A stretch of DNA of 35,070 bases from Eubacteriaceae bacterium (GTDB taxonomy: Bacteria > Bacillota > Clostridia > Eubacteriales > Anaerofustaceae). The stretch's first letter is position 1. The number at the start of each line of letters is the position of its first letter. The notes beneath the pieces are model-generated. The model saw only the letters and a list, made by a program, of their open reading frames with translations. It did not search any database and was not told where the DNA came from. The position numbers and the translations under genes are program-made. This document shows positions 1 through 34,979 of this stretch, one piece after another. The stretch is from contig JAFXKY010000055.1 in assembly GCA_017531485.1 (NCBI GenBank), positions 1-35,070 on the forward strand. The letters are read 5' to 3'.

Positions 1-213
1 GCGCAGCCACGGGCAACCGATGCTCAGCATCGGTTGCGGCGCGGGCGGGGGTGGGTGGGCGGGGATGTCAAAAAAGGAAAAGTGCGACAGCACTTTTCTA
101 CCTTATTGAAAGCCGCTGAAATCCCATTTCAGCGGAAAAGGACGGAGAGGCACCTATGGAGCAAGGCTTGGAGTTTACGGAGAGCCTTGCGGATATACGG
201 TGCATTGACGTCC
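1..213. repeat. Family A composite repeat, copy 1 (left end cut by window)
   Basis: Same module as at 7786-7961 and 28233-28409. In + orientation it holds an imperfectly closed hairpin (ACCGATGC/GCATCGGT, about 16-36), a G-rich tract with five G runs separated by one base (43-64), an A run, an AAAAGTGC/GCACTTTT hairpin, a CCGCTGAAAT/ATTTCAGCGG hairpin, and a nested structure. The nested structure has outer arms GGACG (140-144) and CGTCC (209-213), middle arms GCACC (150-154) and GGTGC (199-203), and inner arms GCAAGGCT (161-168) and AGCCTTGC (183-190). The inner arms differ from the other two copies on both sides, so pairing is kept. No credible coding. Function unknown; a structured RNA on the minus strand or a mobile, palindrome-rich element are both possible. 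Confidence 0.85.
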
Positions 214-226
214 TCGGGCGGGGATG

Positions 227-260
227 TCAAAAAAGGAAAAGTGCGACAGCACTTTTCTAC
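227..260 (-). terminator. Rho-independent terminator of arcC, derived from family A hairpin
   Basis: On the minus strand, AAAAGTGC, a TGTC loop and GCACTTTT are followed by CC and six T (A run 229-234 on +). It lies directly after the arcC stop codon. About 45 bp around it (217-260) repeat the segment at 58-101 almost exactly, so the terminator unit of the family A repeat is duplicated here and appears to serve arcC. Confidence 0.8.
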
Positions 261-285
261 ATCATACTCTTTGCCGGAATACGGA

Positions 286-1239: not shown

Positions 1240-1391
1240 ATATTTCTCCTTGATTTTAAAATGAAATCCGTAAAGTCCGAAAACTTTTCCGTTTTATTTT
1301 CTGCGAATGAGTAAAAATTATGCCTGTGGGTAAAGCGATGTGAAAAAATGTCTTTATTCTGTAAAAAAGTAGATAAAAAATGAAAGTTTTG

Positions 1392-4303: not shown

Positions 4304-4335
4304 GGCGGGGAACCGTCTTTTTTTTATCCGGATCC

Positions 4336-4381
4336 GGCTCCCTTATTTATAAGGGAGCTGTCACGGAGTGACTGAGGGATG
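4336..4381 (+). repeat. Family B repeat, copy 1
   Basis: Perfect 9-bp palindrome CTCCCTTAT/ATAAGGGAG (338-346 and 349-357 of this 4-kb block), then hairpin GTCAC/GTGAC (4360-4372), then the tail GAGGGATG. Same three-part design as copies at 4523-4579, 4661-4707 and 9530-9578, with different bases in the stems. Confidence 0.75.
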
Positions 4382-4470
4382 TTTGGAATGAGTAGAGGGT
4401 ATACGGAGGAAAGTGTTCCACAGCACTTATGGAAACATCCTTACTTCCCTGCACTTTCCGGTGTATACCC
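4377..4470. repeat. Nested long-range inverted repeat
   Basis: GGGTATAC (4397-4404) pairs with GTATACCC (4463-4470) and, just inside, GGAAAGTG (4408-4415) pairs with CACTTTCC (4452-4459). A competing stem links GGATGTTT (4377-4384) with AAACATCC (4433-4440). These two pairings cross, so this could switch or form a pseudoknot, or simply be a mosaic of inverted repeats. No open frame of note. Confidence 0.6.
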
Positions 4471-4579
4471 GATCCCCCTGCGGCGCGCGCCTGAGTGAAC
4501 GCAGTGGACGAAGGCGCCGCGTCCCCCTACAGGTAAGGGGGATGTCATCGAGCCCGAGGCGAAGATGACAGGGGGATGT
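4471..4579 (+). repeat. Family B repeat, copy 2 with GC-rich 5' module
   Basis: A GCGGCGC...GGCGCCGC module (about 4480-4521) precedes the palindrome CCCCCTAC/GTAAGGGGG (4523-4541), hairpin TCATC/GATGA (4545-4568) and tail CAGGGGGATGT (4569-4579). The same order of modules occurs at 9474-9578 downstream of the recombinase. Confidence 0.75.
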
Positions 4580-4660
4580 CTGAGATGCGGAATGTTGGGG
4601 AGTGGGCGGATGTTCACGCGATCTGCCTTCATAATTATCCGCGAGCTTTGGGCAGTCCCC

Positions 4661-4707
4661 GATCCCCCTGATGACTGCGTCATCTTTCCCCCTTACAAGT
4701 AAGGGGG
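4661..4707 (-). repeat. Family B repeat, copy 3 (inverted)
   Basis: On + the order is reversed: tail GATCCCCCTG (4661-4670), hairpin ATGAC/GTCAT (4671-4683), perfect 9-bp palindrome CCCCCTTAC/GTAAGGGGG (4688-4696 and 4699-4707). With copy 2 it brackets a further stem, GCGGAT/ATCCGC, near 4606-4642. Confidence 0.75.
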
Positions 4708-4717
4708 AAAGATCCAC

Positions 4718-4744
4718 GAAAAACGACCGCCGGAATGGCGGTCG
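4718..4744 (-). terminator. Terminator of the GNAT gene at 4780
   Basis: CGACCGCC (4724-4731) pairs with GGCGGTCG (4737-4744); on the minus strand the hairpin is followed by TTTTTC. Confidence 0.85.
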
Positions 4745-7283: not shown

Positions 7284-7512
7284 AAAAAAGTCCCTGTGTA
7301 TATTCACAGGGACGAAGTAATCCGTGGTTCCACCCAAATTAGCAATTATGCTCACTCATTTTCCTTTAACGCAGGTTACGTCCCGTCCTACTTGATTCAG
7401 CGGGCAGCTCGGAAGTGGTTTTCGCGGTTCTCAAACAGGATATTTTCAGCTTACATATCCCTCTCTGGGAGTGAGGTTATCGTTACTCGTCTTCGTCAAA
7501 GCCTTTTAAACT
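7284..7512 (-). promoter_or_regulatory. T-box riboswitch of thrS
   Basis: Transcribed leader between promoter and thrS. The T-box sequence TGGGTGGAACCACGGA is at 7321-7336 (minus strand). Directly after it comes the terminator hairpin GTCCCTGTG/CACAGGGAC (7290-7298 and 7305-7313) with six T. An AGAGAG-type loop lies near 7466. In the specifier region the minus strand reads GAAAACCACTTCCGAG, giving a probable ACC (Thr) specifier at 7417-7419, which fits the gene it controls. Uncharged tRNA-Thr should stabilise the antiterminator and switch thrS on. Confidence 0.93.
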
Positions 7513-7547: not shown

Positions 7548-7637
7548 TGGTATTTTATGCGTTTTTGATTATAGATGTGTTTCATAGTCAATAATCCCCG
7601 TAAAGCTATCTGCACTCCCGCCCGCCACCCCCGCCGC

Positions 7638-7785
7638 CGGGCCGTGCATGCACGGCCGGCCAAGTGGCTTTGCCACTTGGCCGCGAAAGCATGGCTTTCG
7701 CGCGGCGGCGGCAGCGCCGCGCGGGTCGCTTTGCGACCCGCACCCGAAGGCTTTGCCTTCGGGAACCGATGCGGAGCATCGGTTG
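7638..7785. repeat. Array of seven adjacent hairpins (family A, copy 2, variable part)
   Basis: Back-to-back palindromes with unrelated stems: CCGTGC/GCACGG, GGCCAAGTGGC/GCCACTTGGCC, GCGAAAGC/GCTTTCGC, GCGGCG/CGCCGC, CGGGTCGC/GCGACCCG, CCCGAAGGC/GCCTTCGGG, AACCGATGC/GCATCGGTT. Loops are 2-3 nt, and most stems end in GC at the loop. Open frames across the array are a by-product of GC richness. The array runs straight into the conserved module. Confidence 0.85.
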
Positions 7786-7961
7786 CGGCGCGGGAGGGGG
7801 TGGGTGGGCGGGGATGACAAAAAAAGAAAAGTGCGACAGCACTTTTCTACCTTATTGAAACCCGCTGAAATCTCATTTCAGCGGAAAAGGACGGAGAGGC
7901 ACCTATGGAGCTAAGACAGCAGAGAATCGGAGGTCTTAGCGTAAATACGGTGCATTGACGT
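7786..7961. repeat. Family A composite repeat, copy 2, conserved module
   Basis: G runs of 3, 5, 3, 3 and 4 with single-base loops (7792-7813), A run, AAAAGTGC/GCACTTTT hairpin, CCGCTGAAAT/ATTTCAGCGG hairpin (one loop base differs from copy 1), then nested arms GGACG/CGTCC, GCACC/GGTGC and GCTAAGAC/GTCTTAGC. On the minus strand the AAAAGTGC hairpin is followed by TTTTC and a run of seven T, an intrinsic terminator. It ends 39 bp before the small ORF that leads the recombinase. Confidence 0.88.
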
Positions 7962-8000
7962 CCGCGGGCGGGTGAAATAAAAACGAGGAGGTGTGTTCAG

Positions 8001-8168
8001 ATGAAGGTAATAAGCCACACTCAGCAGGAACTGAATAATATCGTCATTTTAAACGGCGAAGTGTATGAAATAATCTCGGAAGCAGTATCGGAAGACAGTG
8101 AAGAAGATGAAGGCGGGTCTTTATTGCAGGGTGTCGACGGATATGCAGGCGGAAGGCTATTCCATTGA
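8001..8168 (+). CDS. Small ORF leading and overlapping the recombinase
   Basis: Fifty-five codons, starting at ATG 8001 with GAGGAGG 8-10 nt upstream, the best ribosome binding site in this region. The product begins MKVISHTQQELNNIVILNGE and has an acidic stretch (SEDSEEDEGG). It overlaps the recombinase by 71 bp in another frame, so it may couple translation of the recombinase or encode a small accessory protein. I do not recognise the family. The first ~35 codons outside the overlap look protein-like; the last ~20 are constrained by the recombinase frame. Confidence 0.55.
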   Translation: MKVISHTQQELNNIVILNGEVYEIISEAVSEDSEEDEGGSLLQGVDGYAGGRLFH

Positions 8169-9459
8169 TGCCCAGAAAGAACTGCTCGCAAGTTATTGCA
8201 GGATCAAGAATATAGATAAATACGATTATTATATCGACGCAGGTTATTCCGGAAGCAACATGGAACGCCCGGGGCTTGAGAAGCTGAAAGATGATTGTAA
8301 GGAAAAGAAAATAAACGTTGTTATTGTCTATAAGCTCGACAGGCTCTCCCGAAGTCAGAAGGATACCTTATTTCTCATCGAAGAAATATTTATACCAAAT
8401 GGTGTGGATTTTATTTCCATAAGTGAAAATTTTGACACCGCAACGCCGTTCGGCAAAGCCATGATAGGTATTCTTTCCGTCTTTGCCCAGCTCGAAAGGG
8501 AAACTATACGTGAAAGAACGAGAATGGGGATGAAGGAGAGAGTGAAGGCAGGTTATTTCCCCGGCGGCGGAAAGCTTCCGTATGGGTATGATTATGATAA
8601 GATAAAAGGCATCCTCGTTCCGAATGAAAGGGCGGAGGATGTCAGGAAGATGTATGAAATGTATATCGACGGATATTCCACAGGCAGGATCGCGGAGATG
8701 TTCGGAATAAAGTACGATTCCATGATAAAGAACATATTGAAAAGCAAGATAAACTGCGGGATCATTGAATATAACGGCAGTGAATACGACGGACTGCATG
8801 AAGCGATCGTTGACAGGTCCGTGTATGACACAGCCATGAACATCATGCAGGGGAGATCTTCACGGTATGTGAGGGTTTCGGAAAATCTGTTGACGGGGAT
8901 ACTTTATTGCGGTGTCTGCGGGGCAAAGATGCGGTATCAGAAATGGGGAAGTGCAGGAAAAAAGATATGTTGTTATTCACAGCAGTCCGATAAGCCATAC
9001 ATGATAAAAGACAAAAACTGCGACAACAAGAAAAACTTCGCTGATGAGATCGAAAGGCTTGTCATAGGCGAGCTTTTCAAGATGTCCCTTGATCCGGAGA
9101 GGATATCTTCTCAGGAGAGAGATGGTGTGAGTGAGAGTTATGAACGTCTGAAAAAGAGAATTGAGGAAAATGACAAAAAGATATCGAATCTGTTGAATTT
9201 CATTGCCAAAGGCATTGCTGTAGAGGAGACGGAAAGCAAGATCGCGTCGATTTCGGAAGAAAACGGAATTCTTAAAAAGAGGCTCATGGAGAGCGAGAGG
9301 AGAGTGAGTAATTTATCAAGTTTCCGTCAGAAGATCACGGGGCTGAGTGACATCTGGGGAGAGCTTGATGATAAAAAGCGGCGGGCGATAGTATTAAGTC
9401 TTGTGGAGAGGGTGGTGGTAACGTATGAGGACATAGATGTTTATTATACGTTTTCGTGA
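8098..9459 (+). CDS. Large serine recombinase (resolvase/integrase family)
   Basis: Site-specific DNA recombinase that cuts and rejoins through a phosphoserine link. The 453-residue product has the N-terminal resolvase catalytic domain with nucleophile S13 in YCRVSTDMQ, the arginine-rich YKLDRLSRSQKD segment near 80-90 and the FGKAMIGILSVFAQLERETIRERT helix. A Recombinase domain follows (about 155-260), then a zinc ribbon starting at C270xxC273, and a coiled-coil segment (about 330-410). Start could be GTG 8098 or ATG 8107. No excisionase, cargo or clear att repeat is seen, so it may be a stranded remnant of a mobile element. It is bracketed by a family A repeat upstream and a family B repeat downstream. 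Confidence 0.93.
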   Translation: MKKMKAGLYCRVSTDMQAEGYSIDAQKELLASYCRIKNIDKYDYYIDAGYSGSNMERPGLEKLKDDCKEKKINVVIVYKLDRLSRSQKDTLFLIEEIFIPNGVDFISISENFDTATPFGKAMIGILSVFAQLERETIRERTRMGMKERVKAGYFPGGGKLPYGYDYDKIKGILVPNERAEDVRKMYEMYIDGYSTGRIAEMFGIKYDSMIKNILKSKINCGIIEYNGSEYDGLHEAIVDRSVYDTAMNIMQGRSSRYVRVSENLLTGILYCGVCGAKMRYQKWGSAGKKICCYSQQSDKPYMIKDKNCDNKKNFADEIERLVIGELFKMSLDPERISSQERDGVSESYERLKKRIEENDKKISNLLNFIAKGIAVEETESKIASISEENGILKKRLMESERRVSNLSSFRQKITGLSDIWGELDDKKRRAIVLSLVERVVVTYEDIDVYYTFS

Positions 9460-9473
9460 GGATAGCACTCATG

Positions 9474-9624
9474 CGGCGCGAGATCCGAACGAGCGAAGCG
9501 AGTGAGGAGTTGCGAGGCGCCGCCGCGGTCCCTCTTACTTGTAAGGGGGAAAGAGGGCGAAGCCCTCAGGGGGATCGGTGAGAACGCAGAGAGGGTGCGT
9601 ATCAGTGTGTTCTGCATTTTCTCA
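9474..9624 (+). repeat. Family B repeat, copy 4, with flanking stems
   Basis: GC-rich module GCGGCGC...GGCGCCGC (about 9475-9524), palindrome CCCTCTTAC/GTAAGGGGG (9530-9549, one G-T pair), hairpin GAGGGC/GCCCTC (9553-9567), tail AGGGGGATCGG (9568-9578), then a long stem TGAGAACGCAGA (9579-9590) against TCTGCATTTTCTCA (9611-9624). No coding potential. It occupies the gap between the recombinase and the next gene. Confidence 0.78.
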
Positions 9625-28075: not shown

Positions 28076-28232
28076 TGGCGCCGCCGTGCTCAGCGCTCTG
28101 CGCTGAGCCGCCTGAGGCTTCGCCTCAGGCAAAATCCGCGGATGCGGATTTTACGGCGGCGGCAGCGCCGCGCGTCTGTGCGAAGCACAGACGCAGTCCG
28201 TGGCGAAGCCACGGACGAGCGTTGCTGACAAC
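28076..28232. repeat. Hairpin array of family A, copy 3
   Basis: Consecutive palindromes: GCTCAGCGC/GCGCTGAGC, GCCTGAGGC/GCCTCAGGC, AAAATCCGC/GCGGATTTT, GCGGCG/CGCCGC, GCGTCTGTGC/GCACAGACGC, GTCCGTGGC/GCCACGGAC, GAGCGTTG/CAACGCTC. Only the GCGGCG stem is shared with copy 2. Nothing here encodes protein. Confidence 0.85.
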
Positions 28233-28409
28233 GCTCGCGGCGCGGGGGTGGGTGGGCGGGGATGGAAAAAAAAGAAAAGAGCGAAGCACTTTTCTACCTT
28301 ATTGGCTCCGCTGAAATCCCATTTCAGCGGAAAAGGACGGAGAGGCACCTATGGAGCTAAGACAGCAGAGAATCGGAGGTCTTAGCGGAAATATGGTGCG
28401 TTGACGTCC
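28233..28409. repeat. Family A composite repeat, copy 3, conserved module
   Basis: G runs of 5, 3, 3 and 4 with single-base loops (28244-28261), an A run, an imperfect AAAAGAGC/GCACTTTT hairpin (one A-A and shifted base, so weaker than in other copies), CCGCTGAAAT/ATTTCAGCGG, and nested arms GGACG/CGTCC, GCACC/GGTGC and GCTAAGAC/GTCTTAGC. It lies between the divergent hydrolase unit and the hypothetical/crp unit. Confidence 0.87.
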
Positions 28410-34184: not shown

Positions 34185-34328
34185 TAGAATTCGATGTAAA
34201 ATATGAAATCATTTTGTGTTTCAGTATCTACTTGTTTTTCCATAGAACCGGAAGCATTTACTTTTATTCCCATGTTTTTAACTGCAGCATCTATACCGGC
34301 GGCAGCATTGCCGATGATGTTCTTGAAT
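34184..34328 (-). pseudogene. 3' remnant of an unrecognised minus-strand gene
   Basis: On the minus strand an open frame ends at the TAA (34186-34184). Over about 47 codons it reads as plausible protein (NAAAGIDAAVKNMGIKV...SGSMEKQVDTETQNDFIF). Upstream of 34328 the frame runs into promoter DNA repeated at 34931, so the true start is lost. Homologue unknown. Suggests the region 34329 onward was inserted or rearranged. Confidence 0.5.
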
Positions 34329-34377
34329 GGCAAACTATTTTGCACATATTGAAAATCCCACATACTTATGGTACAAT
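34329..34377 (+). promoter_or_regulatory. Promoter module 1 with operator-like palindrome
   Basis: GCAAA/TTTGC inverted repeat (34330-34343), TTGAAA (34349-34354), 17-bp spacer, TACAAT (34372-34377). A 36-bp stretch (34329-34364) is repeated nearly identically at 34931-34966. Confidence 0.82.
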
Positions 34378-34923: not shown

Positions 34924-34930
34924 GACTTTT

Positions 34931-34979
34931 GGCAAACTATTTTGCACATATTGAAAATCCCACATATTAATGGTATAAT
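34931..34979 (+). promoter_or_regulatory. Promoter module 2 with operator-like palindrome
   Basis: Same 36-bp segment as at 34329-34364, then TTGAAA, 17-bp spacer, TATAAT (34974-34979), a better -10 than module 1. Confidence 0.85.

What the first reader, a model, noticed from the sequence alone, without database searches (positions are those of the whole stretch)
7786..7961. Minus-strand reading looks like a compact ncRNA with its own intrinsic terminator
On the minus strand the module runs: GGACG...CGTCC nested stem-loop, CCGCTGAAAT hairpin, then AAAAGTGC-TGTC-GCACTTTT followed by C and a run of T. That is the layout of a ~150-nt structured RNA ending in a Rho-independent terminator. The hairpin array lies beyond the terminator. 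In copy 3 the terminator hairpin is weaker, so that copy may be decayed. No convincing minus-strand promoter precedes any copy.
Basis: inference. Interest (0 to 1): 0.7.

Follow-up and report, generated by a model that had tools for sequence, protein, structure and literature searches.

The report
Structured mosaic repeat between bacterial genes
The region is one copy of a modular repeat scattered between the genes of one bacterial species: its folding part is shaped to fold on the opposite strand from the one first proposed, and the terminator beside it is a separate module that usually occurs without it.

Summary
All the hairpins described are present. The region is one copy of a genome-wide mosaic intergenic repeat with separable modules. 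Block B (window 7862-7963, about 102 nt) has 36 full-length copies in this genome and none in 66 other genomes of the order. Across copies its helices change by compensatory substitution (19 of 34 pairs), while two tandem G.A internal loops stay almost invariant. This is strong evidence for selection on a single-stranded fold. The folded strand is PLUS, not minus: consensus energy is -50.6 against -36.9 kcal/mol, all 28 distinct copies tested fold better on plus, and G-T pairs outnumber A-C 17 to 4 on strand-neutral pairs. The minus-strand hairpin plus T-run (block A) is a genuine terminator-like signal, but a separate module. It recurs without B, and 7 of 14 block-A hairpins lie 8-66 nt after a same-strand gene end. 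It sits beside only 5 of 34 assessable block-B copies. So 'a minus-strand ncRNA with its own terminator' is not what the family shows. Closest kinds: pneumococcal BOX plus SPRITE, and REP/BIME. How it spreads and whether it is transcribed are unknown.

The parts
7631..7790 (.). array of short perfect palindromes (hairpin array), ending in GGCGCGGGAGGGGGTGGGTGGGCGGGG; limits approximate
   Evidence: read; same architecture with different palindromes at copy 3 (28080-28250) and in L008, L026, L029
7806..7861 (-). block A: GGGCGGGGATGACAAAAAAA + GAAAAGTGC-loop-GCACTTTTC + TACCTTATTG; read on minus it is an intrinsic-terminator-like module
   Evidence: minus-strand terminator, stem 7848-7825, 10 pairs; recurs in other loci, often without block B
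7862..7884 (+). block B hairpin 1 (CCGCTGAAAT CTC ATTTCAGCGG)
   Evidence: A1 columns 1-23; 3 of 10 pairs with two-sided changes, 100% of cells paired
7889..7963 (+). block B three-tier stem: helix 2 (GGACG/CGTCC), tandem G.A internal loop 1, helix 3, tandem G.A internal loop 2, helix 4, variable apical loop
7940..7944 (+). 3' side of internal loop 2 in this copy reads CGTAA where other copies read CGGAT/CGGAA; column 81 (window 7942) is G in 28 of 29 distinct rows and T in one
   Evidence: alignment A1 and column counts
57..265 (+). copy 1: block A (57-106) - block B (113-213) - second block A (216-265), the latter 28 nt past the end of the open frame of the minus-strand AA_kinase gene (286-1239)
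28254..28409 (+). copy 3: block A with weakened hairpin (28254-28307) - block B (28308-28409)

Best explanation
This is one copy of a species-restricted mosaic intergenic repeat built from interchangeable palindromic modules. SHOWN by sequence: block B has sharp ends (CCGC...GACGYCC), is dispersed in 36 full-length copies, sits next to different neighbour modules even when its own 102 nt are identical, and conserves a plus-strand fold with two near-invariant tandem G.A internal loops through compensatory changes. SHOWN: the minus-strand terminator belongs to a different module (block A), which also occurs without block B just downstream of gene ends. INFERRED: block B is a non-autonomous dispersed element whose plus-sense single strand (RNA, or ssDNA during mobilisation) is recognised through the fold, so structure is what selection sees; block A has been tolerated or co-opted at gene ends as a transcription terminator, as proposed for pneumococcal SPRITE. 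At copy 1 it would terminate the AA_kinase transcript, which runs on the minus strand.
For: 36 full-length matches (94.9 bits or more) among 45 in the own genome; 0 matches in the 60 other genomes and the 66 others, and no match in phages, plasmids or viral contigs. Covariation: 19 of 34 pairs with two-sided changes, 0 of 500 shuffles. Internal-loop entropy 0.15 and 0.04 bits against 0.56 and 0.85 for helices 3 and 4. Strand. One identical 102-mer occurs 7 times with 6 different right-hand neighbours. Block A lies 8-66 nt past a same-strand open frame of at least 150 aa in 7 of 14 hairpins; no block B in the block-A search regions L099-L108. Direct A-B-A arrangement with locus-specific A variants at copy 1, C15:85 and C15:42839.
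Against: No mobilising enzyme is identified: the one Y1_Tnp gene has lost both HUH histidines, and no RVT_1 is found in this 95%-complete assembly. No clean empty site was shown. G-T over A-C asymmetry also fits ssDNA, and composition accounts for part of the strand difference (shuffles -4.5 +/- 3.1 against observed -10.0 kcal/mol). Copies are paralogues, so covarying cells are not independent events. The structure used for the 70-against-4 count was derived on plus; the strand-neutral count is 17 against 4. In 3 of the 7 gene-end block A cases (L022, L099, L101) another hairpin plus T-run already lies between gene and block A, so block A is not the only terminator there.
Confidence: 0.66

Rival explanations
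1. One reading: a minus-strand small RNA of about 150 nt, starting at the GGACG arm and ending in the block A terminator.
For: Order of hairpins and T-run on minus; the outer helices pair on either strand.
Against: The minus fold is weaker in every distinct copy (28 of 28) and in consensus; terminator-like sites follow block B on minus in only 9 of 36 copies; promoter-like sites are at chance (1 observed, 1.26 expected); the conserved loops are G.A-rich only on plus.
Confidence: 0.07
2. REP/BIME element mobilised as ssDNA by the genome's single RAYT-like Y1 transposase.
For: Exactly one Y1_Tnp gene, RAYT-like; a palindromic CCCCCTTA..TAAGGGGG module lies directly upstream of it; compensatory changes are reported for REPIN hairpins (PMC3116915, passages read).
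Against: The HUH motif aligned as NHGH/DHVH/NHVH in three relatives reads DRAN here. No block B in the 7.5 kb around the gene. Y1_Tnp genes occur in relatives that lack block B. Block B is about 102 nt, multi-tier, without a GTAG foot.
Confidence: 0.12
3. Block B is a cis-acting transcribed RNA with a host function (processing site, attenuator or protein-binding site), spread by recombination.
For: Near-invariant tandem G.A loops between covarying helices; the upstream neighbour is co-directional in 20 of 27 copies with a crude ORF call.
Against: Downstream orientation is random (16 same, 15 opposite). Several copies lie beyond their upstream gene's own terminator. The ORF caller was crude: in the window it picked spurious ORFs for copies 1-3. 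No conserved gene partner was seen.
Confidence: 0.15

Closest known systems
Pneumococcal BOX elements (PMC3049150; passages read)
   Same: Modular, species-limited, intergenic, predicted to fold extensively if transcribed; module combinations vary.
   Different: No sequence relation tested; block B is a single 102-nt unit with tandem G.A loops, and it mixes with several palindromic modules.
Pneumococcal SPRITE repeats (PMC3049150; passages read)
   Same: Repeat resembling a Rho-independent terminator, enriched near the 3' ends of genes and thought possibly co-opted; matches block A's behaviour.
   Different: SPRITE has an 18-bp duplex and long U-rich tract; block A has about 9-10 bp and a T7 run, is followed by a palindrome array, and sometimes flanks block B on both sides.
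REP/BIME and REPIN elements with RAYTs (PMC2817692, PMC3116915, PMC3733652; passages read)
   Same: Extragenic palindromes in mosaics, species-specific, compensatory changes reported.
   Different: No GTAG-foot unit in block B, no inverted doublet seen, no catalytically intact RAYT found here, much larger multi-tier fold.

Membership tests
Small RNA gene with its own intrinsic terminator (minus strand) | Conserved fold on the transcribed strand | tested here: not met
   Plus strand is favoured:
Small RNA gene with its own intrinsic terminator (minus strand) | Terminator linked to the structured part in most copies | tested here: not met
   9 of 36 copies
Small RNA gene with its own intrinsic terminator (minus strand) | Promoter before the 5' end | tested here: not met
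   1 of 36 against 1.26 expected; sigma-70-like consensus only
Small RNA gene with its own intrinsic terminator (minus strand) | Transcript detected | not testable with these tools
   no expression data held
REP/BIME-RAYT system | Catalytically complete RAYT (HUH + Tyr) in the genome | tested here: not met
   DRAN in place of NHxH
REP/BIME-RAYT system | RAYT gene flanked by copies of the repeat | tested here: inconclusive
   No block B within C73:9000-16500, but a palindromic module of the same mosaics lies directly upstream
REP/BIME-RAYT system | Short extragenic palindromes in mosaic combinations, species-specific | tested here: met
REP (GTAG or CGTC tagged) | 20-40 bp palindrome with a tetranucleotide foot | tested here: not met
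   block B is 102 nt and multi-tier; a CGTC string occurs on minus inside the outer arm, not as a foot (definition from PMC3733652)
Rfam RNA families | Match to a curated covariance model | tested here: not met
   no block B match at gathering score, no plausible weak one
MITE | Terminal inverted repeats and target-site duplication with a related IS | tested here: inconclusive
   no terminal inverted repeat in block B (CCGC.. / ..GCCC); A-B-A direct flanks of about 45-50 bp at three loci are not a usual short TSD; IS elements of the genome were not surveyed

The most novel reading that the evidence does not exclude
Block B is an undescribed class of structured RNA (or ssDNA) that spreads within one bacterial species as a minimal, protein-free element. 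Its multi-tier fold with two tandem G.A motifs is the unit recognised by an unknown host or mobile enzyme, a bacterial analogue of a SINE-like structured parasite, while coupled modules (terminator, palindrome arrays) make each insertion tolerable at gene ends.
Probability: 0.2. Interest if true: 0.75.

Novelty: new variant of a known kind. Interest (0 to 1): 0.45.

Why it matters
It shows how a within-genome repeat family can supply strong covariation evidence by itself and reveal which strand is the functional one, correcting a plausible strand call made from hairpin order alone. If block B is mobile through its fold, it would be a small, tractable system for asking how protein-free structured elements spread in bacteria with no identified transposase; if it is a host RNA motif, the invariant tandem G.A loops point to a specific binding partner.

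Tried and rejected
Rfam at gathering threshold for the window and at relaxed E-values for copy 2 and one consensus-like copy: nothing for block B. The T-box hit at 7305-7508 (minus) belongs to the ThrRS leader.

A 17-codon ORF (ATGGAGCTAAGACAG..., with an SD-like GGAGAGG) inside block B copies 2 and 3: rejected, because many copies carry GC in place of the AT of ATG with a compensating change on the partner strand (A1 columns 44-45 with 84-85).

Pattern scan of the genome collection: 14 single hits, mostly Streptomyces; none of the 14 matches the model at E<=1, so treated as chance. Viral contigs, phages and plasmids: nothing. Block A/B DNA in 12 other genomes of the family: one 19-nt match only.

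RAYT as the mobiliser: weakened by loss of both HUH histidines. Reverse transcription: no RVT_1 in the assembly, which is a draft.

Literature: five searches on intergenic, palindromic or structured repeats and one adding Clostridia and terminators listed no paper whose title or abstract start describes this family; within that limit I found no print record of it.

Known weaknesses of my own scripts: the block-A regex missed at least one obvious copy, L029, seen, and printed a few chance hits (window 1270-1289) that I left out of the 14; I also left out hits printed on the opposite strand of a block A hairpin. The ORF-neighbour count uses crude ORFs, and for window copies 1-3 it chose spurious ORFs. 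In one search, 36 rows were collapsed to 29 distinct, 35 copies to 28 (C43:19930 was added only later). A1 and model R1 hold 26 of the 36 copies.

Full report
OBSERVATION. The window holds three copies: 57-213, 7806-7963 and 28254-28409. Copy 3's terminator hairpin is indeed weaker. A terminator-like site of this kind is expected about 0.9 times in shuffles of the 700-nt stretch, so it is not evidence alone.

IT IS A GENOME-WIDE REPEAT WITH SEPARABLE MODULES. The window is contig C44 of a 2.17-Mb draft genome. BLAST with the finding gives 44 matches in that genome, and they split into two parts: block A (query 1-52) and block B (query 53-167) occur separately. Twenty-six block B copies were extracted (one search listed 27 regex hits, of which the one at C63:9420 looked like a chance hit and was left out) and aligned (A1). 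A covariance model R1 finds 45 matches at E<=0.01 in the own genome: 36 full-length at 94.9 bits or more, and 9 weaker or partial. The model finds none in 60 relatives, or in all 66 other genomes returned for the order (overlapping sets, stricter filters). Phages, plasmids and viral contigs give nothing, and 14 pattern hits in the genome collection do not match the model.

THE FOLD IS REAL AND LOOKS LIKE RNA. RNAalifold gives 34 pairs, 19 with two-sided compensatory change. Over 20 distinct rows, 96.8% of cells pair, with 99 two-sided cells against 32.9 in shuffles; 0 of 500 shuffles reach these values, and sliding the partner by one to three columns drops pairing to 34-42%. One measure, the number of further pair types, does not exceed shuffles (167 of 500 reach it). 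The helices vary (mean entropy 0.56 bits for helix 3, 0.85 for helix 4), but the two internal loops hardly do (0.15 bits for columns 33-35/95-97, 0.04 bits for 47-48/80-82; 29 distinct rows of 36 copies). On plus these loops are tandem G.A oppositions (33.97, 34.96; 47.82, 48.81). The finding's own copy is the one with T at column 81.

THE STRAND IS PLUS. Consensus energy is -50.57 on plus and -36.92 kcal/mol on minus. All 28 distinct copies tested are more stable on plus; the mean core difference is -10.0 kcal/mol, against -4.5 +/- 3.1 for shuffled sequences of the same composition, so composition explains part. With DNA parameters 27 of 28 agree. On the 30 pairs predicted on both strands, G-T cells number 17 and A-C cells 4. 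On all 34 plus-derived pairs it is 70 against 4, a biased count. Related copies are not independent, and G-T tolerance also holds in ssDNA, so the result says 'plus-sense single strand', not strictly 'transcribed RNA'.

THE TERMINATOR IS A DIFFERENT MODULE. Within 120 nt on the minus-strand 3' side of block B a terminator-like site is present in 9 of 36 copies (two of the 36 have less than 60 nt of flank before a contig edge). Block A itself is beside block B in 5 of the 34 copies with enough flank (reading). Elsewhere block B is mostly preceded by GTTCCACGAACC- or GTTCCACTTACTCAC-type modules. Block A occurs alone: of 14 block A hairpins found by script, 7 lie 8-66 nt after a same-strand open frame of at least 150 aa, including window 236-257, 28 nt past the AA_kinase frame. 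In three of those (L022, L099, L101) another hairpin plus T-run precedes it. The regions L099-L108 contain no block B. This is the pattern described for pneumococcal SPRITE, which are enriched close to 3' ends of genes and may be co-opted as terminators (PMC3049150, passages read).

MODULARITY AND SPREAD. One identical 102-nt block B occurs seven times with six different right-hand neighbours starting exactly after GACGCCC, so block B behaves as a unit with sharp ends. At copy 1, C15:85 and C15:42839 block B lies between two block A copies that share locus-specific variants, suggesting local duplication on insertion or a tandem event; no empty site was proven. The genome has one Y1_Tnp gene, RAYT-like (below NCBI's cut-off), whose HUH motif reads DRAN where three relatives read NHGH, DHVH and NHVH. 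There is no RVT_1. The mobiliser, if any, is therefore unknown. Neighbour genes: upstream co-directional in 20 of 27, downstream 16 of 31, with a crude caller.

JUDGEMENT. The family is a new variant of a known kind: mosaic, foldable, species-limited intergenic repeats (BOX/SPRITE, REP/BIME), with an unusually strong RNA-like core. The most novel reading still open is that block B is a new structured mobile RNA/ssDNA element. Papers: PMC3049150, PMC2267715, PMC3116915, PMC2817692 and PMC3733652 were read as passages only; all other papers were seen only as search listings.

Noticed in passing
7631-7790 and 28080-28250: Arrays of different short perfect palindromes (about 8-9 bp stems, 3-5 nt loops) with shared outer GC-rich borders; architecture conserved, individual palindromes differ between copies.
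   Followed up: partly
4330-4720 and 9529-9590: Another abundant palindromic module, ATCCCCCTG..TCCCCCTTA..TAAGGGGGA..CAGGGGGAT, cloverleaf-like; found beside many block B copies elsewhere and directly upstream of the Y1_Tnp gene (L086 4330-4530).
   Followed up: partly
8098-9459: Large serine recombinase (Resolvase, Recombinase, Zn-ribbon domains) right after copy 2, preceded by a short ORF at 8002; copy 2's right flank keeps only GGGCGGG of a possible second block A, so the recombinase may have inserted there.
   Followed up: no
L085 1090-1995 (minus): RAYT-like Y1 protein that has lost both HUH histidines, while three long-type homologues in related genomes keep them.
   Followed up: partly
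34328-34377 and 34930-34979: Near-identical 50-nt promoter-region-like repeats upstream of small ORFs at the right end of the window.
   Followed up: no
7305-7508 (minus): T-box leader upstream of threonyl-tRNA synthetase (Rfam RF00230, 114.6 bits).
   Followed up: no
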